Part shown: piece by piece, positions 10,983 to 46,719 of the stretch
Numbering within the stretch: the first letter of the stretch is position 1
Layout: each line of letters starts with the position of its first letter
Assembly: GCF_037038585.1 (NCBI RefSeq)
Contig: NC_092521.1
Coordinates: 150,130,605 to 150,194,604, forward strand
Length of the DNA: 64,000 nucleotides
Source of the DNA: Patagioenas fasciata
Lineage: Eukaryota > Chordata > Aves > Columbiformes > Columbidae
Direction: 5' to 3'
Translations under genes and position numbers: made by a program
The notes under the pieces: generated by a model
What the model was told of the DNA's origin: nothing
Database searches by the model: none
Seen by the model: the letters and a program-made list of their open reading frames with translations, nothing else

Positions 10983-11012
10983 AAATTGATTCCTTAGGAT
11001 GCAAGGAATGTC

Positions 11013-11863: not shown

Positions 11864-12032
11864 CGCTTTAGACATCCTAGAAGAAATTAATCTATCAATA
11901 GGGCGCAGAAATAAATTCAGTGAAGCTGCCCTGGAAAATCTGTATGATAACAATCTTTCCCAAAAGTACAGCCAGAGGGGTTATTTATCATCAAGTAATA
12001 TCATTACTGATGGATTCTATGATTGTGGTCAG
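11864..12032 (+). CDS. ARMC3: ARMC3 coding exon (end of ARM region into linker)
   Basis: This 169-nt exon has a TTTTTAACAG acceptor and a GTAAGC donor. Its first base completes the glycine codon of the previous exon, giving the CRLG-ALDILEEIN junction, and it ends on a codon boundary. The translation includes NKFSEAALENLYDNNLSQKY and SSSNIITDGFYD, which match the conserved NKFSEAA / NNLS.KYS / SSSNII.DGFYD stretch of mammalian ARMC3. This segment follows the armadillo repeats and leads into the linker. Confidence 0.96.
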
Positions 12033-12925: not shown

Positions 12926-13026
12926 ATAAAACCTGGAGTGAAATTTTTGTCTTTGGAGGAACTGAGTATGCAAGAGCTTACTGACCGTCGGGCCATAATC
13001 TTCATTAATGCTAAACCACGAGAAGA
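12926..13026 (+). CDS. ARMC3: ARMC3 coding exon (linker)
   Basis: This 101-nt exon lies between acceptor TTCCTTGTAG and donor GTGAGT. It enters in frame and leaves two bases of a split codon. The translation begins IKPGVKFLSLEELSMQELTD and continues RRAIIFINAKP. It corresponds to the 'INPGTKLLPLKEL…RAVLLINSK' segment of mammalian ARMC3. The G(A) end joined to the next exon forms an aspartate codon. Confidence 0.93.
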
Positions 13027-14113
13027 GTGAGTCGTGTTTGATCTACCAACAGTTATTGCAATAGCTCATGTTTTCCATTGTTTCCACTGTTTGCAGTACA
13101 AAGTACTGCATACACATACACATATATAAAATAGAGACATTTCAGTATAGTGCTTCCTGTCCTAGAAGGCAAGAATTTTGTGTTTTCTAAAATAAGAATT
13201 TGGAAAATAACTTCTTTTTCCCTCTTGGCAGAAAAGATTTATTCAGTTGATTTGCTTTTTTTTTTTTTTAATTTAGCCATTAAGACTTATTCATTTAACA
13301 CCCTTTGATTCCTGACAGTGGGTCACCTGGTGTTTTATTAGTTATAACAAAGCTTGTCATCTGCCATAATAATTATGTCATCTAAGCTGAATGTCAGCAT
13401 GCGACAATGAAACCTGTGATTTGATTATGTTCCTGTACAGGCAAAAGCAGGGAATTTTAAGCACAACATCCCAAGAGGCAAGACAAAGCCAAGCATCAAG
13501 CTTTCAGTCTTGATAAAGAACCTGTGTCCATTCCTTCTCTGTTTAAGTTGAAGCCAGCCTAACAAATCTTCTTAGATTTGAATGCAGGAAGTTGGTATTG
13601 GGCTTGTTTAACTGGGAGTAATTTCCTGTAAACAGTCTCACAGATCAAAGAATGGTCTACCAATATTTTGCAAGTCCAAAACCTTCTTCTCTGTCAACAC
13701 ATCACATATTTGGTTTACATTATCATTAGCTTCCCTTTTAAGCTTGCATATGATGCCATAAATACGTCTGAGAATATCTATGACAAATTAAAGTTCCATG
13801 CTCTTTGTTGATTCCTGGAGTTGTCTTTAACTATCAGGTTTTCTTCCTTTGACTTTGATACAGCTTCTTGCCTTTGCATCTCAGCAGCAGTCTTACTCCC
13901 CAATTCCTTTTGTGTCCTTCATTTGGTGTACAATACTTCATTTTTGATCCCTGAATCAGTATCCAGTTTATTAGTGCTTATGTTAGTTCATCCACTTATG
14001 TACTTCCTATGAATATATTTACTGTCCTTTAAAATCAAAACTCTATTTTCATAGCTCAACATGCAAATACTATCTGTGCAAATAATATGCAAAAATATCT
14101 TGCTCTGTTTCAG

Positions 14114-14209
14114 TGTCCTTGCAGTAGAGGAAAAGGCACAAGATTCATCTTATGAGCAGACTCCCTTGTCACCTGCTCTTTCAAGAAAAAGCAGTAGAGA
14201 AAAAACAAG
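14114..14209 (+). CDS. ARMC3: ARMC3 coding exon (serine/lysine-rich linker)
   Basis: This 96-nt exon follows CTCTGTTTCAG and is followed by GTATGG. The translation is VLAVEEKAQDSSYEQ… ending LSRKSSREKT plus two bases of the next codon. It is a low-complexity Ser/Lys/Glu linker, poorly conserved as in mammals, where the same place has a serine-rich stretch with KEK. Both boundary phases fit the neighbouring exons, which is the main support. Confidence 0.85.
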
Positions 14210-15739
14210 GTATGGTCTTAAGATTTACTTACCAGCGTTGTTGTGGTTCTCTAACATTAGAAAGAGAATTCTGATTGGAAATAGTTATAGAAAAATTCAT
14301 AACAGAGTATAAATGCTTAAATACATTGTTAAGCATGTTTTCAGAGTCTTTCTTTTACCTCCTAATTGCAGTAATCTTCCTTTATCTATCTTAGTAATTA
14401 TTTGTCTTCCTCATGCTGTATTTGAACATTTCCTGTTTACTTTGCCGTTTTTCCTTTCAGCATCCCTAGGAGGCAGTGAAATGCTGTTATTTTACAGCTT
14501 GACAACCACAAAATGGGGAAATTAGCATAGAAGTTCCTTCTCAGTTTAGAATTTGGACAAAAAGTTCCTACACTGCCTACATGCATCCTTATTCCTAGGT
14601 TAAATTTCTTCCAGTGCAATTCCATAGATTACTAAAAGCTGAGAAGAGTGTGCTCAGAACTGTCCCAGTTTTGACAGCAACAGACAAAAATGTGTTGATC
14701 TTCAGGGTTCCCTCTAATCCACCTCACACACTAGGTACAGTGCTGCAGTTTGCTCTGCAGAACTGATCTGGTGGGCATGTCCACCTATATCAAATAGGTC
14801 AGAATCTCTGAACTTGTTGTAGGAAATTAATTTCCTTCTTTTACAGAAAGAGGATCTGAGCGTGTCCCTCCCACCTGCAGATAGCTGACCACATGATATT
14901 TGGGATTTAGCCATCTCATTCTGGTTCATTGTAGCTGTTTGCTAATGAAAAGCATAACAAACAGAATTTTCTACTTGAACTGTTAAGAGTACTTACCTGA
15001 GAGAGTCGAGACCACAGTTCTAGTCCTTGTCTTGATAACATTTATTATAAAACGCTTAATTTTTAGATTTTGCCTGTGGAAGAAAACTGAACCATGGTCT
15101 ACCAACTGAACCACTAACTCCTTATGTAAAACAGTAACACAATCACAACCACAACAGTGCCTTTCAGAGAAGGCAGGCATAGCTGCCTAATTCCAGTGGA
15201 ATGTTCAGGATCCCAAAACCAGTCCAGATAGAACCTCCTCACCATCAACAGGATGATGTCTAGTCCTTGATAGGAATATGATGTAACCTACAACTCTCCT
15301 TGGCTTTTCAGTTAGCTAACTTAGTGAGCTGACCATTTATGATGCTGGTTTCTGCGGGTCCCAGTGCTGACTTCCTAATTTTCCCAATTTTATGGTATAG
15401 GGGCCCTTGGCCATACCTCAGAGCTGTTAGTCCTAGTCAGTTATGGGCATTACAAAATGCTAAGTGCTGCAGGGTTTGAAAAAAGGGAGAGGTGGAGTGT
15501 CTGTTATAGGAACTGAGGTACTATGTTTGCAATATTTAGCTTGGAGCTCGTCCATCAACTATGATATGCTACCATCTGTACAAGCATTTTATTGATAGAG
15601 ATAATGGTTGATTTCTTAGACTGCTTATATATTTCTGTGTATGTATGTATATATGTGTGCTTGAGATGAAATCAAGAGAAAATTGGACCCTGCTTTGTGA
15701 TCTCAATAGTTCAGTGGTATATCCAACAGAGGAAAAGCA

Positions 15740-16868
15740 GGAGTTATCTGGACAACGGTCTTCACTGAGCAAAAGCTGATAGCCCGTGGCTTGGACGAGT
15801 GCACTCTCTGCTGGGTTAAGAACTGGCTGGAGGGCCGGGCCCAGAGAGTGCTGGTGAATGGGGCTGCATCTAGCTGGCGGCCAGTCACTAGTGGTGTCCA
15901 CCAGGGGTCAGTGTTGGGTGCAGTCCCGTTTAACATCTTTATTGATGATTTAGATGAGGGGATTGAGACCATCATCAGCAAATTTGCTGATGACACCAAG
16001 TTGGGGGGCAGTGTTGACCTGCTGGAAGGCAGGAGGGCTCTGCAAAGAGATCTGGATAGACTGGAAAAATGGCGTGATTCCAATGGGATGAAGTTCAACA
16101 AGGCCAAGTACCGGGTCCTGCACTTTGGCCACAACAACCCCCTGCAGCGCTACAGGCTGGGCACAGAGTGGCTGGAGAGCAGCCAGGCAGAAAGGGACCT
16201 GGGGGTACTGATTGACAGGAAGCTCAACATGAGCCAACAGTGTGCCCAGGTGGCCAAGAAGGCCAATGGTATCCTGACCTGTATCAAAAATAGTGTGGTC
16301 AGCAGGACAAGGGAAGTGATCCTTCCCCTGTACTCTGCATTGGTGAGGCCACACCTGGAGTATTGTGTTCAGTTCTGGGCCTCTCAGTTCAGGAAAGATA
16401 TTGAGGTGCTGGAGCGGGTCCAGAGAAGAGCAACAAGACTGGTGAAGGGACTTGAGCATATGACCTATGGGGAGAGGCTGAGGGAGCTGGGGTTGTTCAG
16501 TCTGGAGAAGAGGAGGCTTAGAGGTGACCTCATCGCTCTCTATAACTATCTGAAGGGAAGTTATAGCCAGGTGGGAACTGGTCTCTTCTCCCAGGCAGTG
16601 AGCAATAGGACAAGGGGACATGGGCTTAAACTCTGCCAGGGGAAGTTTAGGCTGGATATTAGGAAGAAGTTCTTTACGGAGAGAGTGATCAGGCATTGGA
16701 ATGGCCTGCCCAGGGAGGTGGTGTACTCACTGTCCCTGAAGGTTTTTAAACTGAGATTGGACATGGCTCTTAGTGCCATGATGTAGTAAATGGGCTGAAG
16801 TTGGACCAAGGGTTGGACCTGATGATCTCTGAGGTCTTTTCCAACCTGGCCAATTCTGTGATTCCGTG
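15740..16868 (+). mobile_element. 5'-truncated CR1 LINE with open reverse-transcriptase C-terminal frame
   Basis: A CR1 retrotransposon copy inside an ARMC3 intron, in the same orientation as the gene. An open frame runs without a stop from at least 15,791 to 16,786 and encodes the C-terminal third of the CR1 ORF2 protein. It shows [12 protein letters not shown], the HQGSVLG motif, the polymerase active site FADDTKLGG at 15,978-16,004, then [42 protein letters not shown] and NGLPREVV. The short 3' UTR holds the CR1 block 'gatgatctctgaggtctttt' and ends with ATTCTGTGATTCCGTG, a degraded octamer tail. Homology extends upstream to about 15,740. The endonuclease and N-terminal RT parts are missing. 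Frames on the opposite strand here are shadows. Confidence 0.95.
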
Positions 16869-18368
16869 AAAAGGAGCACTAGAGAAAAAGGCTTAAGGCA
16901 TTACACTTTGAATTATATGTGTATCAGTTTGTTTAGAACTGACATGCAAATGGTAGACATACAGTAGCTACTCACTGTGAGGGTTGAGGTTTTGACTTAA
17001 ATCAGGACCTGAATTGTGAGCTAAGTCTGTCCAAAAGTTATTGACTTTCAAGGCAGATATTTACATTTGACTGGCTATTTGGACTGCAAGCACTTCTGGA
17101 ATTCAGTTTAAATAATTTTGTAGTAGATACCTGACATGGATCTTATGAATTGCATTGTGGAAGGTTCCTCTTTCAGGATGCAAAAGAGTAGATACTGCAT
17201 CTTGAGTATCTTACCAGGCCTGTTCTAGCTTCTGCTCATTTACCAGGTCCTCCCAATGCCCAGCATATTCTGGTCACGACCTACCATACATACGCTGGTT
17301 TGCTCAAAGGGAGCGGGAGGCGGGAGCCCCAGTCATGTTTGCTCTTTGCCAGCAGGGGATTCCTTCATCTTAGATGTTCTAGAGTCATAGGCCATGTTGC
17401 ATCATCTAAAGCAGTTGTGCAGAGCTTAGAGACCTGTTCTGACAAGATAATATAATAACCCTTGGATAGTTGCTTTTTAATGTAATTTATGTGAATTAAC
17501 ACAGTAAATTACTACTCTGTTAGCAACCATAACACTTTCAGAATGCAGAAAAGATTCTTTAGGAAAAAAACAAATACCTGGCTCAATATCCCGCAGTTAA
17601 CTTGTAGGGATACAAAGACTTCTTTCTTCAGGTATGAAATAATTGCTTTTGAATGTCATGATCGAGTTGTATGATTTATAACCCCATTGTCATTCATTTT
17701 GAATCCATAATTCATACATCATTATTATTATTAATTTGTGAGATATATGGGAGTTATTTGAAGGTCAGTATCTGACTCCAAGTCTCAAACATGCTTAGAC
17801 TTTTTCCTACAGTTTTTTTTCCTTTGATCATATGTTTCTGTTCATCATTATTTTGCAAAGTACTACTGAACACAGTTTAAAGCCATTGTTTTGAAAAAGT
17901 GATACTACTGTATATAAACCATAGTTGAAAGCTAAGAGAAATGGCAGTTGTAGTTGTCTGCTGGAGGTGTTTGAATTAGATGTAGAGGAAGTGCCTAGTT
18001 GATAGCTTGACATGTATTTGCATAGACAGATAGCAACATTTTTGATCAAACAGTTGCATATCTGATGTACACATTGACTGAGCTAAAAGATAATATTTAA
18101 TGTAGACTGATAAATGTGCGTTTATTCCATGCTATGTTCCAGTACAGCAGTTAAGGAAGTACTTTTCAATGCTCCTTTTCTAAATACAGCCAAGTCATTA
18201 AGCTATACAGAAAATGAAAGAAAATAGGTGTCATGGCTGTGTTTTGGTGGTAGAATGTTGTATTGGCTACCTTCTCCCTCACACTGACTCTCTGGTGACC
18301 CGTTGGACTTCTGTACTGAAGCTGCAACAGGAATCAGAAACAACTTGGAAACTATTAACTGCCATGAG

Positions 18369-18419
18369 TTCTCCTTTGCAGTGTTCCCCTGGGTTTGCAT
18401 CAAGTATGTCTCACAAGTG
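18369..18419 (+). CDS. ARMC3: Probable 51-nt ARMC3 linker exon
   Basis: A 51-nt segment ends at a good donor (GTAAGA) and has phases that fit both neighbours exactly (enters with one base of a split codon, leaves two bases of TGG). Its translation, SPLQCSPGFASSMSHK followed by W across the junction, aligns with the mammalian linker: S....S.GF.S matches S-YHF-S-A-GF-G-S, and W-RGKGKKEEEK at the junction matches mammalian GW-RKSKGKKEEEK. The weak point is the acceptor at 18,367-18,368, which has little pyrimidine tract. A better-looking acceptor lies at 18,380-18,381 (ttctcctttgcag), but using it would require a different phase from the exon to the left. Without this exon the flanking exons still join in frame. 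Confidence 0.5.
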
Positions 18420-19498
18420 GTAAGACAGCTTTGGAAAAGGGGAGTGATTTTTTTCTGATATAATAATTCCCATTGATAAATAAGATGGGGATAAAAAAGA
18501 GGATAGGGAAAAAAAAAGATAGTAGAATTCTACTGCAATGGTTACTGATTATTTTATAGCACTGAGCTGTAAGACAGCAACTCCACAGTTCCTTATGAGG
18601 TAAATATTAGACAGACATGGTGAACCAAACAGTTGCGGATCAGGGTAGAGACAGGTGCAGAAGACCACCTTCCATCAGCCATTCCACCAAAGAACAGAGC
18701 ATAGTCATAGCTCAGAGAAATAAGCAGAAAAAAAACAAACAAACCATTGTTCAAACCATTTCTTCTCAGGTCTTTCTGAAAACTGGAAAGAAGGAGAATA
18801 ACAGAAGCTCAGGGGCACTGGGTAGATAGAAAAAAAATTCTCTGCTATAGCACTATAATTCAGCAGTGCACTTTTCATAGGGAAAAGAAAGTACTGAGAG
18901 AATAGAAAGGAAGAGCGGTGGGCAAAGAGAAAAAATGCAAGTAACAAGAATTATACCATTTGTGGAAACTGTTGTCATGAAAACCTGCTAAGTCAGACAC
19001 TAAATCATAACTGCATAAATGGAGAAGTAGGTAGCTGTTTAATCTAGCATTGTAAGGTCCCCCAGCTATAGTTAAATAGAATCTTATTAGATAAAGAAAA
19101 CTGTTTGCCTGCTTTTTTCAAGTATAAGTGTAATTAATAACCAGAACAGTTTATTTAAGAGGGTGGTGAATTTTCTATAATTTGAAGATTAAATCTTAAT
19201 TGGTTATCCTTCTAAAAAATGTGCATTACGAAATCTATGAAAAGGGCTTTTTGTGAATATGATAAATCTCAATAGGTAAAAGTTTGCAAAGTATTCTGAA
19301 GACAAATTGCTTGAATTAGACTACTGATAATGGTATATGCCCTTCTGCTTTGTCTAATGCCTTCCATCTTCAGAGCGCTGTTCATTGTAAAATTCTAAGA
19401 ATAATTTGAAAAGCATATAATAATGACAGTGTTACCCAGACTCATGTGCTCTAGTAGTCCTTTTTTCCTCTTTTTTCCTTCCAAGAATGACAGAAGTA

Positions 19499-19557
19499 TT
19501 ACGGATGCAAAAAGAAAAAAAAAAAAAAAAGACAAAAAAAAAAAAAGACAGACCTGT
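19499..19557. repeat. A-rich low-complexity tract
   Basis: Two A runs of 12 or more bases separated by G and GAC. No element body is recognisable on either side, so it may be a simple tract rather than a retroposon tail. Confidence 0.7.
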
Positions 19558-20490
19558 TAAAGAAAAGAAATTTTGTCATATTTCACAGTAGAATTATTCA
19601 TGATTTGTGCTGAAAAAATACTTAATGTTTACAAAACACAAGTTCCATGTGTTCCCACAAATGAAAAATCCTAAGCTTTCTGAGTGTATAGATATTAATG
19701 ATGCCTCTGGTAAGGTACTGATTTTAGAGTTGCTGCATCACTCATGCAATGTACGGTATTCTAGCTAAGGAGAACAAGAATTCCAGTTATACGTCTGCTA
19801 GGTGCTTGTGATGCCTGTTCAGGATCACAGTCATTTTTCAGATTCTGAACATTAGTGAAAAATGTTGCCTGTGCAATGAAAAAAATCAGCAAAACCAGAT
19901 CTCTTATAAAATCTTTGTCTGACAAACCATGTTGTAGTTTGTATAATGCTTGAAGTACATGGATTTGCAGTGACAGAGACTACTGCTTGGCATGTCCTGG
20001 CAAGATTTCAGCCATGCTCTTGTTCCTTTATTTGAAGTCCAGATCTGTGTTGAGTAAAAACTCATGGGAGTTCACAATTTTTAATTCATGACCACATGCA
20101 ACCAAACTGTAATTGACTAAAAGTGTTTCCTGTGTACTCTCTAAAAACTTGTTGTTATTATTATGTAGCTGTACATAGGTGTCTTCTCCCCTAGATAATC
20201 CATATATGGGAAAAGCATATCAGAGCCACAAACAAGCATACAATGAGAATTTAAAGGAATATTAATACGGAGCTAGTGTCTTTTGGTTCCTAACCATCTC
20301 CTGAGGACAAGTTCCACAAGTATTTTCTACAGCTTTGTAGATTTTGGGCTATCAATTGTCATAAGAAACTATTTCCCCTATCCCTCTAAATCAGTTAGTC
20401 TAAAATGTCCTGTTGGAGAACTACTGTGTTCAAATTTGGACTTTAGAGATTACAGTATTCTAAATAAGTGTGTATTGTTTTCTATGTAAG

Positions 20491-20679
20491 GAGAGGGAAA
20501 GGGAAAAAAGAAGAGGAAAAAATGAAAGAAGTTACTGAGATTATGTCTAAAGTCCAGGATCTAGAAAATTCACATTGGCTACCACCACCTGACTTCATTT
20601 TACTGGATTACATTAATGATGCTTCTAAAGCAGTTCTACCACTAACTACTACCCGGGAACAGGTTGTGGCTCTTGCACA
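20491..20679 (+). CDS. ARMC3: ARMC3 coding exon (basic linker, start of EDR1-type domain)
   Basis: This 189-nt exon follows TCTATGTAAG and uses the donor GTGAGT. The translation opens with a lysine/glutamate run, RGKGKKEEEKMKE, equal to the KGKKEEEK stretch of mammalian ARMC3. It continues WLPPPDFILLDYINDASKAV and LPLTTTREQVVALAQ, the beginning of the EDR1/CTR1/ARMC3 peptidase-like domain, with counterpart 'PPSDPDF…YVYEVTKSILPIT'. Two bases of the glutamine codon are left for the next exon. The ATG at 20,468 lies in the intron and is not a start. Confidence 0.94.
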
Positions 20680-21159
20680 GTGAGTACTGAATTGTATTTC
20701 CATAAATAATGCAAATAAGTTGAATTGGTAAAATAACAGTTTTCTCATCCAAGAACAACTTCTCCAAATTTGTGATTTTTCCCATCCTTAATTGGAATCC
20801 ACATCATCTCTGGTCCAGAATTCTGACTTAATTTTAAATTTTAAGGTTCTTTTTTCTAATTTTGTTGTAATTAGTTTAATTTTTTAAAGAATAAAGTGTC
20901 ACTTGCAATCAAAGGGTAAAAAATTATCATTTGGAAAACAATCATATGGACAATTTGAATTTTTTTCACATTTCCATATCTATACTGATCCTTTGCAATG
21001 AACACCATTAACTGCAGACAGCATCTCTTTCAAGGAACAAGGGAGACCCAGGTCCTGCAAAGCCTAAATGCACAAGCTAAACTCCAACCTAGTACCGAGA
21101 TTATTGCAACTTATATGTATCAGGTCTGTTCTTTCTCTTACGGTCTCCCTTGCCTAGTT

Positions 21160-21280
21160 GGTTTGGAAGCCCCTTGGGACAGAAACTCTCTCATATTTTG
21201 TCTTCCTATAGAGCCCAAACCACAAGACATTTTTCTAGTGTTGCTTTTGGGTGCTACTGTAGTTAACATCCTGATGATTT
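21160..21280 (+). repeat. Old L2/CR1-like 3'-end relic
   Basis: A 'ggaagccccttgggacagaa' motif followed by 'cctatagagcccaa' and 'tgggtgctactgtagtta' resembles the 3' end of old LINE-type repeats ('gtaagctccttggggcaggga … gcgcctagcac … ggtgctac.gtaata'). Recognition is from memory and the copy is heavily diverged. Confidence 0.4.
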
Positions 21281-23031
21281 AATAGTGCCAGAATATTGCA
21301 ACAGTGCCTCGGCAGACTGTCGTTATCAATGTGTCATGCATTAGTTACACTGACAACACAGCCTGGGCACCAATCACTGTCATCTCCAAGCAGTGTGTCT
21401 GCTTTCATCTTCCCCTGGGTTTCACCTTTCCTACCTCAGCAGTTTCCTGGCTACCTCCTGAATCTGGGGAGCTCGGCATCAGGTCCCGCTGAGTCTCACA
21501 AAATTTGTTTCTTCTACTAACTCTCATTTTTTAATGAAGTGGTCTGATGTGGTATGAGGAATGATTTTTCTGTCAATTGCAAAATATGACAGGACAGATA
21601 TTCGTCCTTAACTATCCAGCTGTATATAAATCATGCTGCCTTCCTCGAGGTGGAATCCATAAAATGCTCTTTCAAATCCACTCTTCAAACACACCAGTGA
21701 AATACTTGCAGGCATATAACCCGGCAAAACAATCATGGGAAATATCAGTGGAAGGTTTTCTGTGGGGATTTTTTATGTGTACATTCCATTTTAAGCATCT
21801 GCCTGAGCAGCATGTGTTGCATAGGAAGGGGAGAAGGCAGCCTGAGCGGAGTTCCTGCTGTGCTCACAGGTCAGGGGCTGAGCAGACGAGGGAACCAGCA
21901 ACAGTGCTGGCTCTCTCCTTTCAGACAGACACAGCACATCCTCATTTGCACAAGCATGGTGGGCACACAGGCTCAAGCAGCTTTGCTGTCTTCACCAAGG
22001 CCTGGCTAGAGGCACAAGCAGCACAAGTGACTGCTTGGAGCCCCTCAGTTCTCCAGGCTCATCCAGTAGTTCCCAACTTCAAGCTGCCATGTCCAGCCTG
22101 CTCAGCGCTAGCTCCCTGTGCCCAGGCTATTGCATCCTGCACCTCCTCAGGCCCCAGGTTTTGAGAAACATGGCCTTTGAGGTTGCCTTGCATGTACTGT
22201 GAGGACAGAAACTGTTCACAGTTACTGCAGAGGAGGTGATGCAGTTTTAACTCCCTGTCTGATGCAGTGGCTTGTGACTCCCATGTCAGCTTTGCAACAC
22301 CTTGTCAGAGGGAGAGCCCTCAGTAATACTTGTGCCTTTGGCTGAGGACACTGTGGGAAGCAAAGGTGTTTATGTACAGGGGCCGTGCATAGAAGAGGTG
22401 AAGTTGTGTGTAAGAGGAGGTGGGGACTTACCCATCAGGAATCGGTCCTGTGCCTGCAGTCACCCCAAAGACAAGCTTTTGGCAACGTTTGCACAGATTG
22501 CGAGTTCTGATCTTCTCATTTGTTGACTGAGCCATTCTTTTTAATGGATAAATACACACCCCTCACCTCCCAAATACTGGCTTCAATATAAGAAAGCACA
22601 TGTAGCAGTTGAAGTAACCTTTCTGGATATAGTTGCTTTCTGATGTTGGGATCATGACCTATATTCTCATGCCTTTATTATTATTTCAAACAAATGGTAG
22701 GGCTGGGGATTGTGACACATAGCTCACGTAATCTGTTGCCTGTAAAGACAGACACTAGCTTCTGAACTACTTCCTCAGTAATTACACTGTTATTGATGAT
22801 TTCCACTGAGGACTTTATGCCTATACTAGGCCTCTCCAGGATCTCTGCTGGCAGCTGTTGGGCTTTGGTTTAGGTCTCTGACAAATTAAAAAAATAAAGC
22901 AAATGTAGCAAAAGTGTTGAAGTCTTATATGTCATTTACTTACTGCTTGCGTATATTTCATTTTGATATATTTTTGTGATGAACACAAGAGGAATTATAG
23001 AGGTAATTGATCCCAGTATATATTGGAACAG

Positions 23032-23194
23032 GTTTGTTGCAAACAAGATGGGTGGCTCAATTGAAAGAGACAAACTACATGACTTCAACTGGGAACTTCA
23101 CATAAGTGAAATAGAATTTGAACTGAAACGCAACATTGTTCCTATCGGAAAAGTCAAAAAAGGGACATTCTACCACAGGGCCTTACTTTTCAAG
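23032..23194 (+). CDS. ARMC3: ARMC3 coding exon (core of EDR1/CTR1-like domain)
   Basis: This 163-nt exon follows ATTGGAACAG and precedes GTACAT. Its first base completes glutamine, giving ALAQ-FVANKMGG. The translation includes KLHDFNWELHISEIEFEL, RNIVPIGKVKKGTFYHRALL and ends LFK on a codon boundary. This is the core of the domain shared with plant CTR1/EDR1 kinases, whose members read '…VPLGSL…GLCRHRALLFKVLAD'. The cysteine found two residues before HRALLFK in plants is phenylalanine here (T-F-Y-H-R), as also in mammalian ARMC3 by memory, so an active cysteine-protease-like centre is not expected. Confidence 0.97.
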
Positions 23195-24709
23195 GTACAT
23201 TAGCATTTATTTTACAACATAACATTACTGATGTTAAATGGACATTATAAACAAAAGTATACTTGCATCAGCATAATATAATTTATATTAATGTAAAATC
23301 TTTTGTATACGTTTAAGTTCTTTTGTACTGGCAAAGCTGATTTCCCTGTGAATGAAAGCCAGCATCGTTTCTTTCTATAAACATTCTTGTTGTCATTAAA
23401 TTGTCTTAAGTGATATCAGCAGAATACTTGATAAATGGCAAAGAGCCAATATATTTGATTTGGAGTCAAAACATTTTACATTTTCTGCAAACTGTAAAAT
23501 ATTGAATTATGCAGCTTGCTTTTTTTCCATGCTGCAAATGTAAACTTGTTGGGACAATTTTTATTTTATATCTATCCAGTATTCTATGACAGGATATAAC
23601 AGCTTTTATGCTCTAGTTTCATAGACTGGGAGGATCGATTTCTTCTGTCTCTATGTGAAGAGGTACTGGTGCAGCCTGCTTATCTGTGCCATTTTTTTCC
23701 CTTGGTTTTTGGGTAGCTGGGCTCCTCTCCTTGGATAGAAAGGAAAAGAGAAGCAAGGGTCTAGCACATTATGTGCTGTACACATTAAGCAGGAAAGACC
23801 TAGGAAATGGTACATAGGAAAAAGAGCACAATCCTAAATTTATGGCGTCTGTGGGGAGAGAAATTCCTGACATATTTTATGGAGGTTTGAGAACGTGAAT
23901 TGTGCTGAAGCAGCACTGATGTTCCCTTATCCTCTGCTGTCCTAAGAAACCTGGGTAGGCACAGATCATCTCTCTTAAAGCTACAGCAGTCTAAGCAATG
24001 GATATCATTGTCGATTTGTAACAAGTTACAAATCTTTCAGGATTTCATTCCTTCACAGCAAATGCATTCTGAGAAAGCAGGTTTGTAGCTGGAAACCATT
24101 ATATGTCTGTCAGAGACAGCACAGAGGAAAGGCAGGTGTTTCATCTAGCAGACACTTGCCTCGCATTGCATTGCTTCCCACATTTGCAGGGCTGAAAAGC
24201 AAGGCGTGTGCTTTGGAGTGAAACAGCAGTCCTAAACTTACACTGATAAAAATGTTGAGTTTTTACATTTAACATTTCATACTAGCTATATGTGTGCAAT
24301 GTACCTGCACCTCATTGCTTGAATAGACGGTTCTTCAAAATGTTTTTCAGAAATAAGGTTCCCAACTATATAAACCATTGCTGGGTACTGTGGATGTTGC
24401 ACTTCATTTGACATCCGAAGGACTGGCTGATAAACAAATATATCAGTGTCTGAAAAGAGTTAAAATGAATATTTTTTATGTTGTGCATGGAATATGGTAG
24501 AAATAACATTTAAAAGCCTACACTTTCTAAGCAGAACCAATAATAAAGATTTGCAGTTTGGAACACGTTAGGGATTTACAAAGGCTGCCTCAGGAAAGCT
24601 CTTGGCCTTTCTGATATTCGCTTTCTTTTTAAGTGTCTCTTGGCCTTGCTGTATACTACAGAAGCTACATGTATTGACTGTGATTAACTCCTTTTTCTTT
24701 CCTTTTCAG

Positions 24710-24919
24710 GTGATAGCAGACAGAATTGGCATTGGCTGTAGTTTAGTTCGTGGCGAGTATAACAGAGCTTGGAATGAAGTTGAATTGGTGGATGACTCTC
24801 CTCAAGGAATAGCTGGGCTTCTGCTTCCTCCTCAAGAGTATATTGTAGATCTCATGTTTGAGCCAGGCTTTTTGATGAAACAAGGAAGTGCAGAGGCAGA
24901 TCAGTACAAACATATTTAA
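24710..24919 (+). CDS. ARMC3: ARMC3 terminal coding exon with stop
   Basis: The exon starts after CTTTTCCTTTTCAG and runs in frame to TAA at 24,917-24,919. The translation begins VIADRIGIGCSLVRGEYNRA, continues WNEVELVDDS and EYIVDLMFEPGFLM, and ends EADQYKHI. It completes the EDR1-like domain: plant members have 'EYIVDLMGDPG' at the same place. The end matches the mammalian protein closely (SREADLYRFI), so the C-terminus is complete. Together the eight firm exons encode about 437 residues of ARMC3, or about 454 with the probable 51-nt exon. The ATG at 24,602 is intronic. Confidence 0.97.
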   Translation: MIADRIGIGCSLVRGEYNRAWNEVELVDDSPQGIAGLLLPPQEYIVDLMFEPGFLMKQGSAEADQYKHI

Positions 24920-38500: not shown

Positions 38501-39603
38501 ACTTGTGTTTAGATTTACCTTTTAAGGACAGCAGGCCAAACTAAAATACAGGTCCTATTATAGGTATATTTATAGGCCAGCTCAAAGCAGCTGTGACTGC
38601 AAATCACACCACATAAACAAGTAGCCACTTAGATAGCACATCGCCTTTGCAATTACTCGATCAATACAACTAAGAGCAATGCCTTCAACATCCATTTAGG
38701 AGAGCAAGACCACTTTCGCATGCAAATACCAGACTTGTTCTCCTGAAAAGCAGTTGATAATGTCTGCAAGCAAATGCCTCAAAAGATTTTGGTCTATTTA
38801 CAGCCACAGTGGTTGTTCAATTTTTAAGCTGATCTCTTTACCTCTCAGTAAGGAGTGATTGAAACCTTTACTTGCAAATGCTGCACCAGTATTTAAGCAG
38901 GTGTTTTACTCATTGCTTTAATAAGGTGCAATTATTTAGGCTGAATGCACACATTATACACAAAATCCAGTGGGGCAGGATGGGGGGGTGACACCGACCA
39001 TGGCCAACTGGCTGTGACCAGTGTATCAAAGTCCTGTGACATTGATATAGCAGCTTATCTGCTCTGGAATGTGCTCGGGAGCTGCCTCCTCCACTGCATT
39101 GCAAGAGATGAGTATAGGCAAGCATTCATCGCTCAGGAGTTGATTTTTTTTTCACATATGCTATGCTGATGGGAGATGCTCGTGGAGGTGGTTTCACCCT
39201 CAGACTTTTTGATTAGGAAGGAATGAAACTATTTTACTCATTGTTTTCCAGCCAATCTATTAATTCTGTGGCAATCTCATATCACTATAGATGTTCTGCA
39301 CAGTGTGTACAGGCTCATAGCAGGCGTTGCTGGAGTTTTGCACTATGACTTCTGCTCTCCTGTTGTGTGTCCCTCATTTAACTGTAGCCCCATTTATCTT
39401 GGGCTATAGATACTACTTTCTTCCCGTGCACCTTGTTAGCATCACTTTTCATCGAGGCTTGTGGAAGTTGTCAGTCTTTGATAGCCCACAAATGTGTGCT
39501 AGTTCTGGTTTCTGATGATTTCCAAGAGGCAAACTACCAAACCTTTCAGCAATATCCAGGGATGAGGAAGGAGCACCAGCAGGCCAGCAGTTATCCCAAG
39601 CCA
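35534..39603. other. Intergenic region, second part
   Basis: No gene recognised. The part from 36,700 to 36,850 and the part from 38,540 to 38,945 are repeat-free and AT-rich with many homeodomain-type cores, and look like possible conserved non-coding sequence. The start exon of MSRB2 would be expected in this area but I could not identify it. Confidence 0.45.
38540..38945. promoter_or_regulatory. Candidate conserved regulatory element
   Basis: A repeat-free 400-bp block with a perfect reverse octamer ATGCAAAT at 38,720-38,727, several TAAT/ATTA cores and an E-box CAGGTG near 38,899. It sits between ARMC3 and the MSRB2 relic, on the side of the expected PTF1A neighbour. Regulatory function is inference. 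Confidence 0.25.
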
Positions 39604-39780: not shown

Positions 39781-40105
39781 ACAGAGGGCTGAGCTGGGAG
39801 AGCAGATGGTGCCTGGGGTCATAGGTGTCCATTTCTGTTCAGAGCCTTCTCAGGCAATGTGCTAGAGCTGCTCTTCATATGTAGCACACAGGATGGAAAG
39901 CAGATGCAAAGTCCTACACTCGCCCCCACTCTTACGTCCCTGAACTGTCCTCCTGTGTTTTCTCTGTACCCATAGAAATGGAGGTGATGATGGAAACCAT
40001 CACCTCAACAATGATTAAAACAGCATTAAAAATAATACGACTTTCTACATCTAATTGAAGACACAGGCTCTCTGATGAAACGAGCTGAAGCAACTGTTGC
40101 TACAG

Positions 40106-40165
40106 ACTGGGAAAAAAAAATTACTCAAGTGTAATTTTATGTTACAAGAGAAAAAAGAACTGAAC
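40106..40165 (+). pseudogene. MSRB2: MSRB2 exon relic with stop codon and lost donor
   Basis: After a CTACAG acceptor-like end at 40,100-40,105, the frame reads D-W-E-K-K-I-T-Q-V, then TAA (40,132-40,134), then FYVTREKRTE. This matches the mammalian [20 protein letters not shown] residue by residue, with the stop in place of the glutamine (CAA to TAA needs one change). Directly after, the sequence is CTAAGC where a donor (GTAAGC-like) would be expected, so the exon can no longer be spliced normally to the next. A run of nine A in the exon is another weak spot. Confidence 0.85.
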
Positions 40166-41129
40166 TAAGCTAAAGCACTAATGCTACCCAGGGTTAAGCC
40201 TCCTCCTCTGCCTGATGGGCAGAGAAAAACCTGCTTTGGGAAGCTGTCATTACTCAGCTGCTTCACAGGTTTTCCCCTGCCTCCCTGTGGTTGGAAGTTA
40301 CACATACTGAACCAGCTGGATGTTGTTCTGACCCAGCCTGCGTTGCAGATGAAAAAACATTCTGCACTCTTTTTATTTTCTTTTTTTTTTCTGGGATACT
40401 TTGCTGCCAGCTCAGCCGTCTGTGTGGCGGTAGTGGAGGCCACTCCAGAGGGAGAGAGAAGATCATATTTTTGTCCTGTAGTCTGCTTTTTTTGACCGTA
40501 TACAGAATAGCTACAAAATATGCAGGAGCCAGGTTATCCCTTGTGTGCCAGATCAACCACCCACCTTGTCCCCACATTTTGCTTCCTTCTCTGGTGGAGG
40601 CCACATAGCACTGTGGGTGCAGCACCATCATCCCTAGCCCAGAGCCACGATTTCTGCGTGCGAGGCGCATGCAATGTGGGATTAAATAATGTGAACTGTG
40701 CCCAAATCCTTATCTGTAAAATAAAGATCCCAATTTTGGACCACGCAGGAAGGAGGAAAGTCCCTTTGTAGGGACACTTTGAAGTTGTGGCACTCCATAG
40801 CAGAGACCTGGTCTTTGGGATCCTGCACTTTTCACAAGTTCCTCAGAGGTCACGACTCCAGCCCTGGTACCTGGATGATTTATGCATCTGACTGGTCTCG
40901 AAGTTTCTGGGGGCAGGGGGTAGTCTTCACTATTAATCCAAAGGCATCCTCCCCTTCATTTCTTTGGGCTGCTCGTGTTTGTTCTTCAAAGCCCCCCTGT
41001 GAAGCCTTCTTTTTATGGTTTTTCTTCTGTTTTGAATCTGATTCCTACATGCTCATTCCAGATGGTGAGTTTTTAAAGACCTGCATTATTAACTTCTCTT
41101 TTTTTTTTCTTTTCCTCCTTTTTTAATAG

Positions 41130-41206
41130 CCATTTAGTGGGATCTATCTCAATAACACAGAATCAGGACTATACTACTGCATGTGCTCCAAGGCCCTACT
41201 GTTCAG
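41130..41206 (+). pseudogene. MSRB2: MSRB2 exon relic (PFSGIYLNN exon)
   Basis: This 77-nt exon lies between a long pyrimidine tract ending TTTTTTAATAG and the donor GTAAAA. The open translation [20 protein letters not shown] continues KALLF. Mammalian MSRB2 has [25 protein letters not shown] (shown as recalled). The first zinc-binding pair CxxC becomes CMCS: the second cysteine is serine. The exon itself has no stop and its splice sites look usable. Confidence 0.92.
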
Positions 41207-44200
41207 GTAAAACCCTTTAGATTCCACAGCATCCTTATAATGCCATAACTGTGACGGGAGGGGCAGCGTCTTTTCATGAGAAAAACTGAAAGTGTAGGTC
41301 AGAAGAGCAATCCTTTGGTGCCAGAGTGCTATATATAAGATTTCCAGGATACCTGTGGTGATACAGGTACATGATGTGCCCTTTTCTTGAGCATATGAGG
41401 ATCTCCAGTGGTCAGGAGACAGTAGTTGCTATAATACATTAGGATCTGCCTTTTCCTCCTGGCACAAACATGGTCCTTTTCGGTTGATAATAATTCTGTT
41501 TAAGAGGTCCCTAAGCCACAAGATGCCACAAAATATGTGTATTTATGCATGAGTATCACTGTACGTTTGCTCTCTTCTTGCAGACTTCTGCCACTCACGC
41601 CGCTGGGCTGGAGAGACCTGTGCTCTGCCTTGGTCCCGCTGTTGTGATGTTCTTACTGCTGGGTCCCTCGTACCGGAGCTGAGACCTCCTCTTCACCCCA
41701 CGTCCCTCTTGTTCCCTAGATTAAATTCCACTGGTTTTGCCTTTTTGGTTACATCTACTTTTTAAAATCTGACTGCGAATGACTGTGCTATTAACCTCTG
41801 TGCTCTTTACAATACTAAATATTTTGCAACTTAATTAAAGTCTACGTAAAAGAAAATACAGTGCCTTGGAGTAGGATGTGCAGAGGGTGTTCTGTTCTCT
41901 GTAACTGAACCAGAAAAGACAGTTCCTCATATTTTTTATCCAGAAAATAGCCTTTATTTATTCCCAACTGAGAGCTCAATGGAATATGGCTGATGTGCTC
42001 ATTTTTATGAAGACTTTAAAGGATGCATCACAGATCAGAATGTCAAACGGGAAGCTGAGGAACGAGAGATCTGGATAGCAAGAAAGGGGGGAAATGTAAT
42101 GGCAGTATCAAAAATAAACCTCAATTAAGCAATCAAATAGTAAAATTTGAGGCTGATAATTGTGTGCAGTTAGGTTTCCTTAGGCCCAGTACAGAAAACT
42201 AATATTATGTATATGAACATTTGCTTAAATGTATATTTTTCTGTAGAGATTTGCTAATAAACATTTTAAAATATATTTATTTCAGAAGCTAGTGCAGCAT
42301 TGCAGAATATTCTGAAGGCAAATACAAAACATAAAAATACCTCTGGAAAATTCAGATAAGCTAGAGAAACTTTAAATTACGAAACTGTTCCTTTAGTTTA
42401 GGTGTCCTTTATTTTAGACAATAGACATTGACAGGTCAACATGAAGAGAGATGAGCACTGGAGGGAATTGCTTCTGCTGCTAAACCAGTAACAAAACAAT
42501 AGTATAACCAGTCATGTTGCTTTTTGCTGTATTCAGCTCTCAGATAATATAAGTACTTTTGTCTAAAGTATAAAATAACGCTGAGCCTTACAGACTGATA
42601 CAGGGAAATTAAACAACAAAACAAAACAAACAACGAAAACTTACAGAAAAATAACTTTTAAGAAAATTGAAAGCTATTGAATGTGAAAAATGGTCTGAAA
42701 ATGCATTTTACATGAATGCATTACGTTGTGAAGGCCACTAACAATGAGAGGAAAAAATGGTATTTGATAAGACCTTCATTCATCATGGTTATTTCCTGGT
42801 GCATTAAAAATCCCCCTTCTTTTTCAAATGCATTAGATCATTAGCTACAGGTAAACATGAAGCATTTCCTCCTTTCTTCCAAAGTATACATATGTGTATA
42901 CATTTATACCAGAACTTACTACCTTCTGCTACCAAATATTCATTTGAAAGAGTGAGAAATACATGGAACAAACCCCTAACCTTTATAGATAGCAAATTGT
43001 GGTGCTTTAATGAAATATCAAACCTTCAGCAAACCATAAACCTACAGCTGAGATTCTTACAGCAAAAAGCACTTTTTAGAATTATCTGGATTCCATCTAG
43101 GACGACTGAAATAGGGATCAAAGTAAATGACATGTGCTGGAGGAATGGTGTGTCGAAGGCTAATCTAATGCATATGTTTAGGGAAAGTCCATTTATCCAT
43201 AAATTAAGTGGTGAAATACTTCAAAGGACAAATGCGATCTCGAACAGCAATATTTTGGGTACTAAAATGTTTCTATTAGGGAATCTAAGTGATATTACTG
43301 TTAGTAAAACCACACAGAGACCATTTCTATTGAGAGCTGGTTTAACAGCTCAAAAAAAATGATCCTTTAGCAGTGGAAAACATCTACAATAAACTTAAGT
43401 ATTGCGAGCGGCATGTAAGGGATGGAGTCAGGCAGGGTCAGATGCAAACCCCACATAGCATTAAAGACCTTCCTCAACTCTACAGGGTTTCAGAGAGGAT
43501 GCTCATATTTATGTATGAATAAGCAGAAGGATCCCCGTCTCAAAAAATGAAGTTCTGATTGAAATCTTTTGAAAATAAAAAAGGAAACAGCACAGGTTAT
43601 TCTTTGGGACCCTATGGCTGGTGGGCACAGTGTTTGTGTGGTTTTGTGGCAAGGAGCTCTCTTTGGCCAGAAAGAAATACCTTCTCATACAAACACAGAG
43701 TCTGCAAACCGCATTTGCTTCAGTGCAGCCTGCTTCTGTGCTGTGTCCTACTTCTCCCCAGTTCCACAGAAGGGAGGAGGTAGAAGAACATTTTCATGGG
43801 TCTTCATGGAAAGGTCTGAGCAACAGCCCGCACATTCAGCAGCCATTTACAGTGAATTATCAAATGCATGTTGAAGCATGCACTGTTCTTTGGGTTGGAT
43901 TTTTTAAGCTTTTTGCCCAGCTTGTTTGTCTTGTCTTCCTAAGAGGCCCTGTATATAAGATTTTCAGATTTTTCTTCACTGTATTATTAGCCAACCAACA
44001 TATACATGATATATACTAGATATTTTGCTTTAAATTCTATATTGACTAATGCACTAATCCCCTTGATCACAGAAAAGCTGCTGCTGATGTTGGTGTCTCC
44101 ACTCACCACTAGATGCCAGTAAGAGCACTGGGTTTGTGAAATAGGGCTAAAACATGGGAAATCGGGAGGAAACAGTTGTGGCGGGTCCCCAGGCCACTTA

Positions 44201-45025
44201 TCCTACAGTATGTGAGTCTACCTTCATTTCTAGCCCTAACTCACACTAGGTCACTCTTCGCTAAGAGAAGATACTCGTTATCAAAGCTTGCACAACTTTA
44301 AACAGAAGAGATTATCTCATTTCTGTATACTAAATCCCAAAAATATTTTCTGATCGTATTTCCCAATAAGGTCTAGTTTTTAATATGCTACTAAACAGGG
44401 CTGGTGATTCTGGATGTTAAGAAGAGTCACTCACAAGTCGTCAGTTTGTAGTATTGTTTCTGATGGCTGCAATTATCTCCTGAGAAAAGTAGATCTTTGT
44501 GCTGTGAGGATTCGTCATTTGTTGACTGATGGTTTGAGTAGGGCTCTATTTGATTTTCCAGACTGATTTGGTGGCTGACTGCAAGCCGAAGCCATCACAG
44601 ACACCAGCCCAGTCTGGTGGGACAACCAAGCTATTTTCCATACTTCATTTCTTCTTGTAAACTCTCTCCCCTGAGGTTGTGCTGCATTGGGCCAGGCTTC
44701 AAACTGCAGCTTTACAGATTTAATTCAACTAAACAGTTCACTCAGTTGTTGCACAAACCTTTTTGCAAGCTTTATAAAATGCCAACCTGTCAGTGACATA
44801 GAAACAGTGAGACAAAAGCTCTTGTTGTGGGCTGATCAAGAATCCCCTTTGGAAAAGAGCTTCCAGCATAGCTTGATGCCAGTGAGAAAACTTCTACTGT
44901 GCCAACTATTATTAATAGTAGTACAAGACAGGGATGAGGGGAAAAAGTCAATGTTCTTATTAAAACCAGACCTTTTTGTAACATCTCTGTTATTAATTAG
45001 CAAGGAAATCTGGTTTCCATTATAG
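41207..45025 (+). other. MSRB2 relic intron
   Basis: No exon or clear mobile element identified. A segment at 41,581-41,850 has an acceptor-like TTCTTGCAG followed by an ATTAAA near 41,836, but without a recognisable protein it cannot be called an exon. Confidence 0.4.
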
Positions 45026-45173
45026 TTCAGAAAAGAAGTACAGTTCTGGGACTGGATGGCCATCGTTTTCTGAGTCTTATAGTACTTGTGGCAGAGATGA
45101 AAATAGTACCAGTACTATGAAATGGCCAGATAACTCATTGAGATCAACTAGAACTGAAGTTGTCTGCAAACAG
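45026..45173 (+). pseudogene. MSRB2: MSRB2 exon relic (SGTGWPSF exon)
   Basis: This 148-nt exon follows TTTCCATTATAG and precedes GTATGA; its first base completes the serine codon left by the previous exon. It is open throughout. The translation starts [18 protein letters not shown], with the MsrB family signature SGTGWPSF, and ends [10 protein letters not shown], holding the first cysteine of the second zinc pair. The middle ([20 protein letters not shown]) has drifted from the mammalian TSGSDESHTGILRRLDTSL, including loss of the histidine, though the length is unchanged. Confidence 0.93.
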
Positions 45174-45479
45174 GTATGATTATTTTGGAGGTGATACCCA
45201 AAATCCCAGATCTTAACAAATAAGTTTGTTTGTGCCCATGAATAAATCTACCTAAATCTAACAGTGAGAATTACAGTATCACAATAAATATTCTGTCTTA
45301 CTTCTTGGTATGAAACACATTAGTAGATTTCTAAATACCTAATATAGACAGTTGGTTTGGGTGAAGAAAATTATGTGACTGGGGACAGTAGTTGTTTAAG
45401 TATAGCCAAGGCCTGGAGTTTAGACAGAAAATTTACTCAGAGGACCTCAGGTGAACTGCAGGATGTGACAACAGACAGT

Positions 45480-46280
45480 AGGAGGGACTCTGAGATTTAG
45501 TTCACCCATTTGCCCCATCACAGGGTCGGTGCTTCCTAATTCAGTCCTGCTAGAGGTTTACTGAAGCTATTCTTAAAATATGCAGTGACGGAGATTCCAC
45601 AGCCTCACTAGGTAGTTGTAACCTTCATGTCTTCCTGCTGTTGCTTTGACACCAGGGAAAACACTAAATTTGCTCTACAGCAGCCAAAGCTCATTACTCT
45701 GCCCTGCATGGTGGTGGTGGCGCACCACACCTTCACAGCTATCTTCTATGGGTACTCTCATTTCACAGAAGCCACATTTCCATGGCAGCTGTTCCTGCCC
45801 TGGGCATGTCCCTGTTCTTACACCTTTACCCTTCCCTGACCCATGAGCCATACTTGTACTGGGACATTCTGTAACACCCAGGTCCTTTCCTTTTCTAAAG
45901 AACTGATAGCCCTAACCATTTCTTCCCAATCTTGAGTCTGTGCTGTGTATTACATCTGCTAAGATACAAAAGTATGCAATCGAGTTTAATGAATTGCAGA
46001 CCCTTCTAGCAGGATTAAGTATTATCTACAAATGTAACAAGCATTCATTGCAGTCCCTTATCATGGCATAGTTCGTGTTTTCAGTAATATCCAGCAAACA
46101 TCTTTCAAGAACCTCAGCTGAAGACAACCTTCCAATTTTATAATGAATTAGTAATAGCTATTCTGAGTCTTTTTCCCATCAATAATGTGGAGGGGGAGAA
46201 TCCTCAACTGACCTGTGAGAAGGACCTCCAGTGACAGTCTCAATTAACTTGAAATTTTCATTATGTATTGAGAATTCTAG
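45480..46280 (-). mobile_element. Ancient CR1-like LINE relic in MSRB2 intron
   Basis: The blocks 'gtgacggagattccacagcc', 'aggattaagtattatctaca' and 'taacaagcattcattgcag' appear in the order of the 3' part of an old minus-strand CR1-type LINE seen across sauropsids. Highly diverged, with approximate limits, recognised from memory. It ends before the last MSRB2 exon. Confidence 0.5.
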
Positions 46281-46533
46281 ATCCTCCCATTTATTTCTTG
46301 TACTTTCTGCCATTAGTACGTTTTCACTTCCTCATCTGGGGCAGATATTCACCCACTGGCCAGAGGTGATTACTCCAGGATGTATTTCTAGTGTCTCCCC
46401 AAGACTTCCCTGTCACACAACTCAATAGTGAATTAATCACACGAGGTTCTTACTTCAGGATAGCATAGTAAGTACCAGCACAATATTGGTCCATAATTAT
46501 AACGGTAATAATGGTACATAATTTCTGTTGCAG

Positions 46534-46719
46534 TGTGAGGCCCAGCTAGGCCATGTATTTGATGATGGTCCCACAACTTCTGGACAGGGATTCCACAACT
46601 TCTGGACAGGGATTCTGTATGAACAGTGTTTCGTTAAACTTCAAACCCAGCTCTGGTCAATGAGAAGTGGATCTCTGTGGCTTATAGAACACCCCTTCAC
46701 TGCTCATACAAGCTTATGA
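46534..46719 (+). pseudogene. MSRB2: MSRB2 last exon relic with 22-bp frameshifting duplication
   Basis: After TTTCTGTTGCAG the frame continues exactly from the previous exon: [20 protein letters not shown], the second zinc cysteine and the GHVFxDGP motif of MsrB. A perfect 22-bp tandem duplication (46,571-46,592 and 46,593-46,614) then moves the frame by one base. Translation passes into unrelated residues to a TGA at 46,717-46,719. The catalytic cysteine and NS(V) residues that should follow (TGT ATG AAC AGT GTT, from 46,616) are still in the DNA but out of frame. In that old frame a stop stands at 46,661-46,663, close to the normal protein end. Confidence 0.92.
46571..46614 (+). repeat. 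22-bp exact tandem duplication
   Basis: Two identical copies of a 22-base unit starting ccacaacttctggacaggga. Since 22 is not a multiple of three, it shifts the MSRB2 frame. Confidence 0.98.

What the first reader, a model, noticed from the sequence alone, without database searches (positions are those of the whole stretch)
40106..46719. MSRB2 appears to be a unitary pseudogene in this bird
Four exons of mitochondrial methionine sulfoxide reductase B2 stand in the conserved place after ARMC3, with introns, yet carry several separate lesions: a stop, a lost donor, a lost zinc cysteine and a frameshift before the catalytic cysteine. Several independent defects argue against a single sequencing error. 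If real, this lineage would depend on MSRB3 or MSRB1 for repair of methionine-R-sulfoxide in mitochondria.
Basis: partly seen in the sequence, partly recalled or inferred. Interest (0 to 1): 0.9.

Follow-up and report, generated by a model that had tools for sequence, protein, structure and literature searches.

The report
Dead MSRB2 gene in a pigeon
A pigeon genome carries only a broken relic of the gene for a mitochondrial enzyme that repairs oxidised methionine, while other birds compared keep an open version, so the pigeon may be relying on related enzymes.

Summary
The window is from a band-tailed pigeon (Patagioenas fasciata) or a very close relative: its ARMC3 exons match that species' protein apart from exon-junction residues. 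Lesions: in-frame TAA, lost donor, lost zinc cysteine, lost conserved His and Arg, a 22-bp tandem duplication shifting the frame before the catalytic Cys and, probably, a lost start codon. At residues invariant in 29 other birds' predicted proteins the relic is changed at 13 of 70, against 0-5 in any of those birds. ARMC3 of the same species is within the range of other birds. Searches of the 1.45-Gb assembly find no second MSRB2. The MSRB1 and MSRB3 exons found are open; MSRB3 keeps its mitochondrial-leader exon. The sandgrouse, from the pigeons' sister group, has an open MSRB2 model. So this is a unitary pseudogene, probably old: a real loss, but an ordinary kind of event. Whether other pigeons share it is untested. 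Sea-turtle and kagu models hint at separate losses.

The parts
6837..24919 (+). 3' exons of ARMC3 (upstream syntenic gene), stop at 24917-24919; matched exons open, stops in the alignments only past exon ends
   Evidence: tblastn with P0121 Patagioenas ARMC3 (residues 338-776), 8 segments, differences only at exon junctions; 3' end
39047..39091 (+). probable relic of MSRB2 exon 1 (mitochondrial leader): IAAYLLWNVLGSCLL against bird MAARLLRRMLGSRLL; ATA in place of the start ATG
   Evidence: profile of nine bird leaders; 0 of 300 shuffles reach the score; no CpG-island-like stretch between 24918 and 40055
40061..40164 (+). relic of MSRB2 exon 2; acceptor kept, donor lost (ctaagc follows)
   Evidence: tblastn 56.2 bits, 77% identity to Spheniscus; sequence
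40132..40134 (+). in-frame TAA where the 29 birds compared have Gln
41130..41206 (+). MSRB2 exon 3, splice sites present
   Evidence: tblastn 47.4 bits
41187..41189 (+). codon of the second zinc-binding Cys of the first CxxC, now Ser
   Evidence: equivalent of Cys57 of MsrB3 (my mapping from the alignment; zinc site from passages)
45026..45173 (+). MSRB2 exon 4, open, splice sites present, GTGWPSF motif kept
   Evidence: tblastn 90.5 bits; PF01641 34.1 bits
46534..46663 (+). relic of MSRB2 exon 5 with acceptor and old stop codon
   Evidence: tblastn in two frames, 41.6 and 40.8 bits
46543..46545 (+). codon of the conserved His of AHLGH, now Gln
   Evidence: invariant in 29 birds and in the five MsrB alignments printed
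46588..46590 (+). codon of the conserved Arg two residues before the catalytic Cys, now Gly
   Evidence: invariant in 29 birds and in the five alignments
46571..46614 (+). 22-bp tandem duplication (46571-46592, 46593-46614) that puts the catalytic Cys codon (46616-46618) out of frame

Best explanation
This is a unitary pseudogene: the only MSRB2 found in this pigeon's assembly, dead in its original place. Shown: several disabling lesions in exons with introns retained, after ARMC3, with no second copy in the assembly. Inferred: the gene died on the pigeon branch after it split from sandgrouse and has decayed without constraint for a long time. The share of conserved residues changed corresponds to about 0.10 neutral changes per site (about 0.055-0.16), which suggests tens of millions of years, so the loss probably predates the genus and perhaps all living pigeons. 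Inferred: reduction of methionine-R-sulfoxide in mitochondria is carried by the mitochondrial form of MSRB3, whose leader exon and the later coding exons found are open in the same genome.
For: Lesions at the stated coordinates. 13 of 70 bird-invariant residues changed, the stop included (14 of 71 as printed, one being a placeholder at the lost exon junction), against 0 in 17, 1 in 6, 2 in 5 and 5 in 1 of 29 other birds. MSRB2 terminal branch 0.237, median 0.033. With the same nine species for both genes, this lineage's branch is 0.229 in MSRB2 (next 0.066) and 0.093 in ARMC3 (second of nine, Struthio 0.118). Relic versus sandgrouse: 28 of 128 residues differ; penguin versus sandgrouse: 5 of 130. 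Genome: PF01641 4 matches; sandgrouse MSRB2 7, of which 5 are this locus and 2 are MSRB3 and MSRB1; exon-4 DNA 1 match. The relic shares Ile at residue 21 with the sandgrouse alone of the 29 birds. MSRB3 and MSRB1 exons open. Neutral scaling.
Against: Exon 4 is fully open, and exons 3 and 4 keep both splice sites. No RNA or read data were available. ARMC3 of this lineage is itself on the fast side of the birds compared, so part of the long MSRB2 branch may be a fast lineage. Other pigeons could not be checked at DNA level; the age rests on protein changes and on clock rates that are recalled. Exon 1 is only a probable call. A functional copy in unassembled sequence cannot be wholly excluded.
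Confidence: 0.95

Rival explanations
1. Sequencing or assembly errors make an intact MSRB2 look broken.
For: The tandem duplication alone could be an assembly fault, and no reads were seen.
Against: Besides the duplication there are a stop, a lost donor and three lost conserved residues, among 28 of 128 residues that differ from sandgrouse. Matched ARMC3 exons in the same window carry no frameshift or internal stop, and the MSRB3 and MSRB1 exons found in the same assembly are open.
Confidence: 0.02
2. An intact, functional MSRB2 copy exists elsewhere (a transposed gene, or one in a GC-rich unassembled stretch) and this locus is the dead original.
For: GC-rich genes are known to be missing from bird assemblies (recalled). 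Protein clusters at 90% name only some members, so a pigeon MSRB2 could sit inside another bird's cluster.
Against: Three searches of the 1,453,922,657-base assembly find only this locus, MSRB3 and MSRB1. None of the 120 displayed rows (203 passed) of the search with the relic's own translation bears a pigeon name, while the seven best rows of the ARMC3 search come from five pigeon species.
Confidence: 0.03
3. The loss is recent or polymorphic, confined to this species or individual, not a feature of pigeons.
Against: The load of missense changes corresponds to about 0.10 neutral changes per site, far more than a recent loss should show.
Confidence: 0.12
4. The locus keeps a non-enzymatic role, as a transcribed RNA or as a short peptide from exons 3-4.
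For: Exons 3 and 4 keep splice sites and exon 4 is open.
Against: Exon 4, though open, is changed at five sites invariant in the 29 birds (A79S, G81S, S88N, N91S, R94K), which looks like drift; I saw nothing that points to constraint, but conservation among pigeons could not be tested.
Confidence: 0.03

Closest known systems
MSRB2 (mitochondrial methionine-R-sulfoxide reductase B2; SelR domain PF01641)
   Same: Place after ARMC3, exon order, sequence closest to bird MSRB2
   Different: Not translatable as the enzyme: stop, lost donor, frameshift, lost zinc Cys, His and Arg, probable loss of the start codon
Unitary pseudogenes and lineage-specific gene losses of birds (for example COA1 erosion PMC8709867 and repeated MDA5 loss PMC8619217; seen only in the search listing)
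   Same: A single-copy gene kept by other lineages decays in one
   Different: Here the gene is a mitochondrial protein-repair enzyme with paralogues that may cover for it
MSRB2 models of sea turtles (P0289, P0291, P0281) and kagu (P0260)
   Same: Signs of decay at the same enzyme: two turtle models leave the frame before the catalytic Cys and all three lack the His; kagu has an altered CxxC and a missing Trp
   Different: Different changes, so separate events if real; only predicted proteins were seen

Membership tests
Functional MSRB2 enzyme | Open reading frame through all exons | tested here: not met
   TAA at 40132, donor lost after 40164, 22-bp duplication at 46571-46614
Functional MSRB2 enzyme | Catalytic Cys in frame | tested here: not met
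   Cys codon 46616-46618 lies after the frameshift
Functional MSRB2 enzyme | Four zinc-binding Cys (two CxxC pairs) | tested here: not met
   First pair reads CMCS; zinc site as described for MsrB3 in PMC7475093 (passages)
Functional MSRB2 enzyme | Conserved His (AHLGH) and Arg (RFC/RYC) | tested here: not met
   AQLGH and QGF; both residues kept in the five alignments. Their catalytic role is recalled; one search found no paper for it.
Functional MSRB2 enzyme | N-terminal mitochondrial leader with start codon | tested here: inconclusive
   Only a probable relic with ATA at 39047
Functional MSRB2 enzyme | GTGWP motif | tested here: met
   Exon 4 GTGWPSF
Unitary pseudogene | Original syntenic position | tested here: met
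   Follows ARMC3 on the same strand; that ARMC3-MSRB2 is the order in other vertebrates is recalled. Downstream PTF1A was not found in the window with a recalled bHLH query.
Unitary pseudogene | Introns retained (not a processed copy) | tested here: met
   Exons 2-5 spread over 6.6 kb with most splice sites present
Unitary pseudogene | No functional copy elsewhere in the genome | tested here: met
   limited to the assembly
Unitary pseudogene | Functional orthologue in relatives | tested here: met
   Open protein models in the 29 birds compared, including the sandgrouse; several are partial and two (flamingo, frogmouth) are flagged LOW QUALITY. Function itself was not tested.
Unitary pseudogene | Relaxed constraint | tested here: met
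   (protein level only)
Unitary pseudogene | No functional transcript | not testable with these tools
   No RNA data
Pigeon-wide loss | Shared lesions in other Columbidae | not testable with these tools
   No DNA of other pigeons was within reach; no pigeon name in the displayed MSRB2 rows

The most novel reading that the evidence does not exclude
Mitochondrial MSRB2 has been lost repeatedly in sauropsids (pigeons, sea turtles, kagu), each time tolerated because the mitochondrial splice form of MSRB3, whose leader exon is nearly unchanged between human (as recalled) and pigeon, takes over repair of methionine-R-sulfoxide. Pigeons would then be natural, long-term knock-outs of the MsrB2-Parkin mitophagy switch described in mouse and human platelets.
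Probability: 0.4. Interest if true: 0.6.

Novelty: new member of a known kind. Interest (0 to 1): 0.42.

Why it matters
MSRB2 is described as confined to mitochondria (passages of PMC6316033; PMC7475093 also places it there) and as a switch for mitophagy in platelets, where mouse knock-outs show more platelet apoptosis (passages of PMC6685081). A bird group built for sustained flight that lives without it would be a natural knock-out, and would make it testable whether mitochondrial MSRB3 is enough. It would also warn against assuming the full set of three MsrB enzymes in birds. As an event, loss of one paralogue of an enzyme family is ordinary.

Tried and rejected
Exon 1: a plain tblastn with whole bird proteins showed only weak hits. 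A CpG-island scan found none between ARMC3 and exon 2. A leader profile then gave one hit at 39047-39091, taken as probable only. One of three held-out leaders (tinamou P0087) was not recognised by that profile, so it is not sensitive.

ARMC3 control: a first tree gave this species an ARMC3 branch of 0.016, but that tree held two other pigeons, so it was not a fair comparison. Without them the branch is 0.088, fifth longest of 15, and with the nine species shared with MSRB2 it is 0.093, second longest. The pairwise counts were not affected.

PTF1A downstream: a recalled bHLH query found nothing convincing in the window.

Literature: searches for MSRB2 with birds+pseudogene, chicken, pigeon and gene loss, and for MsrB with birds and gene loss, listed no title or abstract start on MSRB2 loss in birds. 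Most listed papers were not opened; passages of PMC3316567 and PMC3473315 were read and the passages shown did not bear on it. The library holds only open-licence PMC papers. A search for the catalytic His and Arg by number found nothing.

Pigeon-wide loss by absence from the protein database was considered but not claimed: few members of a cluster are named, and 120 of 203 rows are shown (120 of 6407).

Rows dropped: of 39 bird MSRB2 rows that I recognised among those shown were used. Ten were left out (P0078, P0091, P0118, P0248, P0260, P0263, P0276, P0282, P0283, P0293: second models, partial or alternative isoforms, or the flagged kagu model) and were looked at apart. There the partial or alternative-isoform rows differ or end where their exons differ; Buteo (P0248) has 4 changes and kagu (P0260) 6 changes and 2 gaps.

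Weak matches left alone: the MSRB3 query also matched contig 5 (E 1.9) and contig 1 near 192.73 Mb (E 9.45); taken as chance, not examined.

Full report
Identity of the window. Two ARMC3 exon pieces of the window were searched against the protein database. The seven best rows come from five pigeon species, led by Patagioenas fasciata. tblastn of that protein (P0121) against the window gives eight segments that agree except at residues next to exon ends, while Columba livia differs within exons. The window lies on contig 2 of an assembly of 1,453,922,657 bases at 150,130,605-150,194,604. That contig is 170,063,604 bases, close to but not the same as the 170,067,140 listed for the P. fasciata protein's contig. 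I therefore call it band-tailed pigeon or a very close relative; the species is in the Columbidae.

What is there. ARMC3 ends at 24919. Downstream on the same strand tblastn with bird MSRB2 proteins finds exon 2 (from 40061), exon 3 (41130-41206), exon 4 (45026-45173) and exon 5 (46534-46663) with 56.2, 47.4, 90.5 and 41.6/40.8 bits (P0077). The best of 50 dinucleotide-shuffled windows gives 28.9 bits. Exon 4 alone finds mouse MsrB2 in the PDB at E 4.5e-13 and nothing else at 0.001. The acceptors of exons 2-5 and the donors of exons 3 and 4 are present; the donor of exon 2 is not.

Exon 1. Other birds have a leader exon (MAARLLRRMLGSRLL and the like). A profile of nine such leaders finds one place, 39047-39091, reading IAAYLLWNVLGSCLL, in the right order and strand. 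The stretch 24918-40055 scores 7.8; the best of 300 shuffles of it scores 4.1, and eight other, partly overlapping 15-kb stretches of the window score at most 1.7. The start codon position reads ATA. The profile missed one of three held-out leaders, so I hold this as probable only.

Lesions. Exon 1: no ATG (probable). Exon 2: TAA at 40132-40134 and no donor. Exon 3: second Cys of CxxC is Ser. Exon 5: His of AHLGH is Gln, Arg before the catalytic Cys is Gly, and a 22-bp tandem duplication (46571-46592, 46593-46614) shifts the frame before the Cys codon at 46616-46618. The zinc role of the CxxC pairs is described for MsrB3 (passages of PMC7475093); the catalytic role of the His and Arg is recalled, but both are kept in the five MsrB alignments printed. 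MSRB1 of this genome lacks that His, so the His is not universal in the family.

Relaxed constraint. In an alignment with 29 birds, 71 columns are invariant among the birds. The relic is changed at 14, one of which is a placeholder at the lost exon junction, so 13 of 70, the stop included. Taking each other bird out in turn gives 0 changes in 17 birds, 1 in 6, 2 in 5 and 5 in one (Harpia). Under LG+G the relic's terminal branch is 0.237, the median 0.033 and the next longest 0.111. The control is ARMC3. My first ARMC3 tree gave this species 0.016 but held two other pigeons, which shortens the branch. With the same nine species in both trees, this lineage has 0.229 in MSRB2 (next 0.066) and 0.093 in ARMC3, where Struthio has 0.118 and Numenius 0.091. 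So the lineage is on the fast side in ARMC3 but within the range; only MSRB2 stands out. Relic versus sandgrouse differs at 28 of 128 residues against 5 of 130 for penguin versus sandgrouse; the same pairs differ in ARMC3 at 63 and 40 of 504. Simulated neutral change reaches the observed 13 of 70 (0.186, interval 0.112-0.292) at about 0.10 changes per site, interval about 0.055-0.16. Clock rates were not looked up. If bird rates are near 2e-9 per site per year (recalled), this means tens of millions of years.

Is it the only copy? PF01641 against the assembly gives four matches: two on contig 1, one on contig 19 and exon 4 of this window. The sandgrouse MSRB2 protein gives seven: five are this locus, one the contig-1 gene and one the contig-19 gene. 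Exon-4 DNA matches only itself. The contig-1 gene reads as MSRB3 and the contig-19 gene as MSRB1 with its UGA codon. An intact copy in unassembled sequence remains possible.

Who might cover for it. The recalled human MSRB3 mitochondrial isoform finds its exons on contig 1. The leader matches at 26 of 26 aligned residues, the next two exons at 34 of 37 and 25 of 27, and the last exon keeps a zinc Cys, the His, the Arg and the catalytic Cys. A short exon, SETKFDSNSG, sits between consensus splice sites. So the MSRB3 coding exons found are open and the mitochondrial form could be made; the other first exon and MSRB1's first exon were not examined. A review places MsrB2 only in mitochondria and MsrB3B in mitochondria in human, with no evidence for that splice form in mouse; it also says the MsrB3 gene seems to be only in mammals, which this assembly contradicts (passages of PMC6316033). 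Compensation in pigeons is inference.

Who else lacks it. Of 39 bird rows that I recognised among those shown, none bears a pigeon, fowl or duck name, but few members of each cluster are named, so I claim nothing from this. The sandgrouse, in the Columbimorphae with doves and mesites (passage of PMC11111414), has an open model from exon 2 on (P0117) and alone of the 29 birds shares an Ile with the relic at residue 21. Two sea-turtle models (P0289, P0291) leave the frame just before the catalytic Cys and, like P0281 (LOW QUALITY), lack the His; the kagu model (P0260, LOW QUALITY) has an altered CxxC and lacks the Trp of GTGWP. These look like separate losses but were seen only as predicted proteins.

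Known or new. Five full-text searches listed no title or abstract start on MSRB2 loss in birds, within an open-licence library and without opening most of the papers listed. The event itself, a unitary pseudogene of one member of an enzyme family, is a known kind. The mouse work used whole-body MsrB2 knock-outs at 30 weeks and reports increased platelet apoptosis (passages of PMC6685081), so loss is survivable but not free in a mammal.

Noticed in passing
P0289, P0291, P0281 (sea turtles; proteins): MSRB2 models of hawksbill and olive ridley turtles leave the frame just before the catalytic Cys; these and the flatback model (LOW QUALITY) lack the conserved His. A likely independent loss in sea turtles.
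   Followed up: partly
P0260 (kagu, Rhynochetos jubatus): MSRB2 model flagged LOW QUALITY, with CVCC read as YVGC and the Trp of GTGWP missing: a possible further loss.
   Followed up: partly
P0114 Harpia and P0248 Buteo: Hawk and eagle MSRB2 carry more private changes at conserved sites (Harpia 5, Buteo 4) than the other open models compared (0-2).
   Followed up: no
15708-15773 and 15710-16786: Columba livia ARMC3 isoform X3 has a segment (TEEKQELPGQQ) that maps here, at the edge of a CR1-like reverse-transcriptase ORF (CR1 name recalled; ORF) in an ARMC3 intron; the motif TEEKQEL is in 1 of the 120 ARMC3 rows. Possibly an exon gained from the repeat.
   Followed up: partly
37089-37250 and 39879-40043: Stretches upstream of MSRB2 exon 2 align with apparently over-extended N-termini of penguin, flamingo and frogmouth MSRB2 models, so sequence around the dead gene is still recognisable.
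   Followed up: no
56451-56900, 62401-63000, 63351-63950: CpG-island-like stretches downstream with no gene identified; a recalled PTF1A bHLH query did not match convincingly.
   Followed up: no
assembly G000:C1 about 178.937-179.000 Mb, minus strand: MSRB3 keeps a mitochondrial-leader exon identical at 26 of 26 aligned residues to the human leader as recalled: unusual conservation for a targeting sequence.
   Followed up: partly
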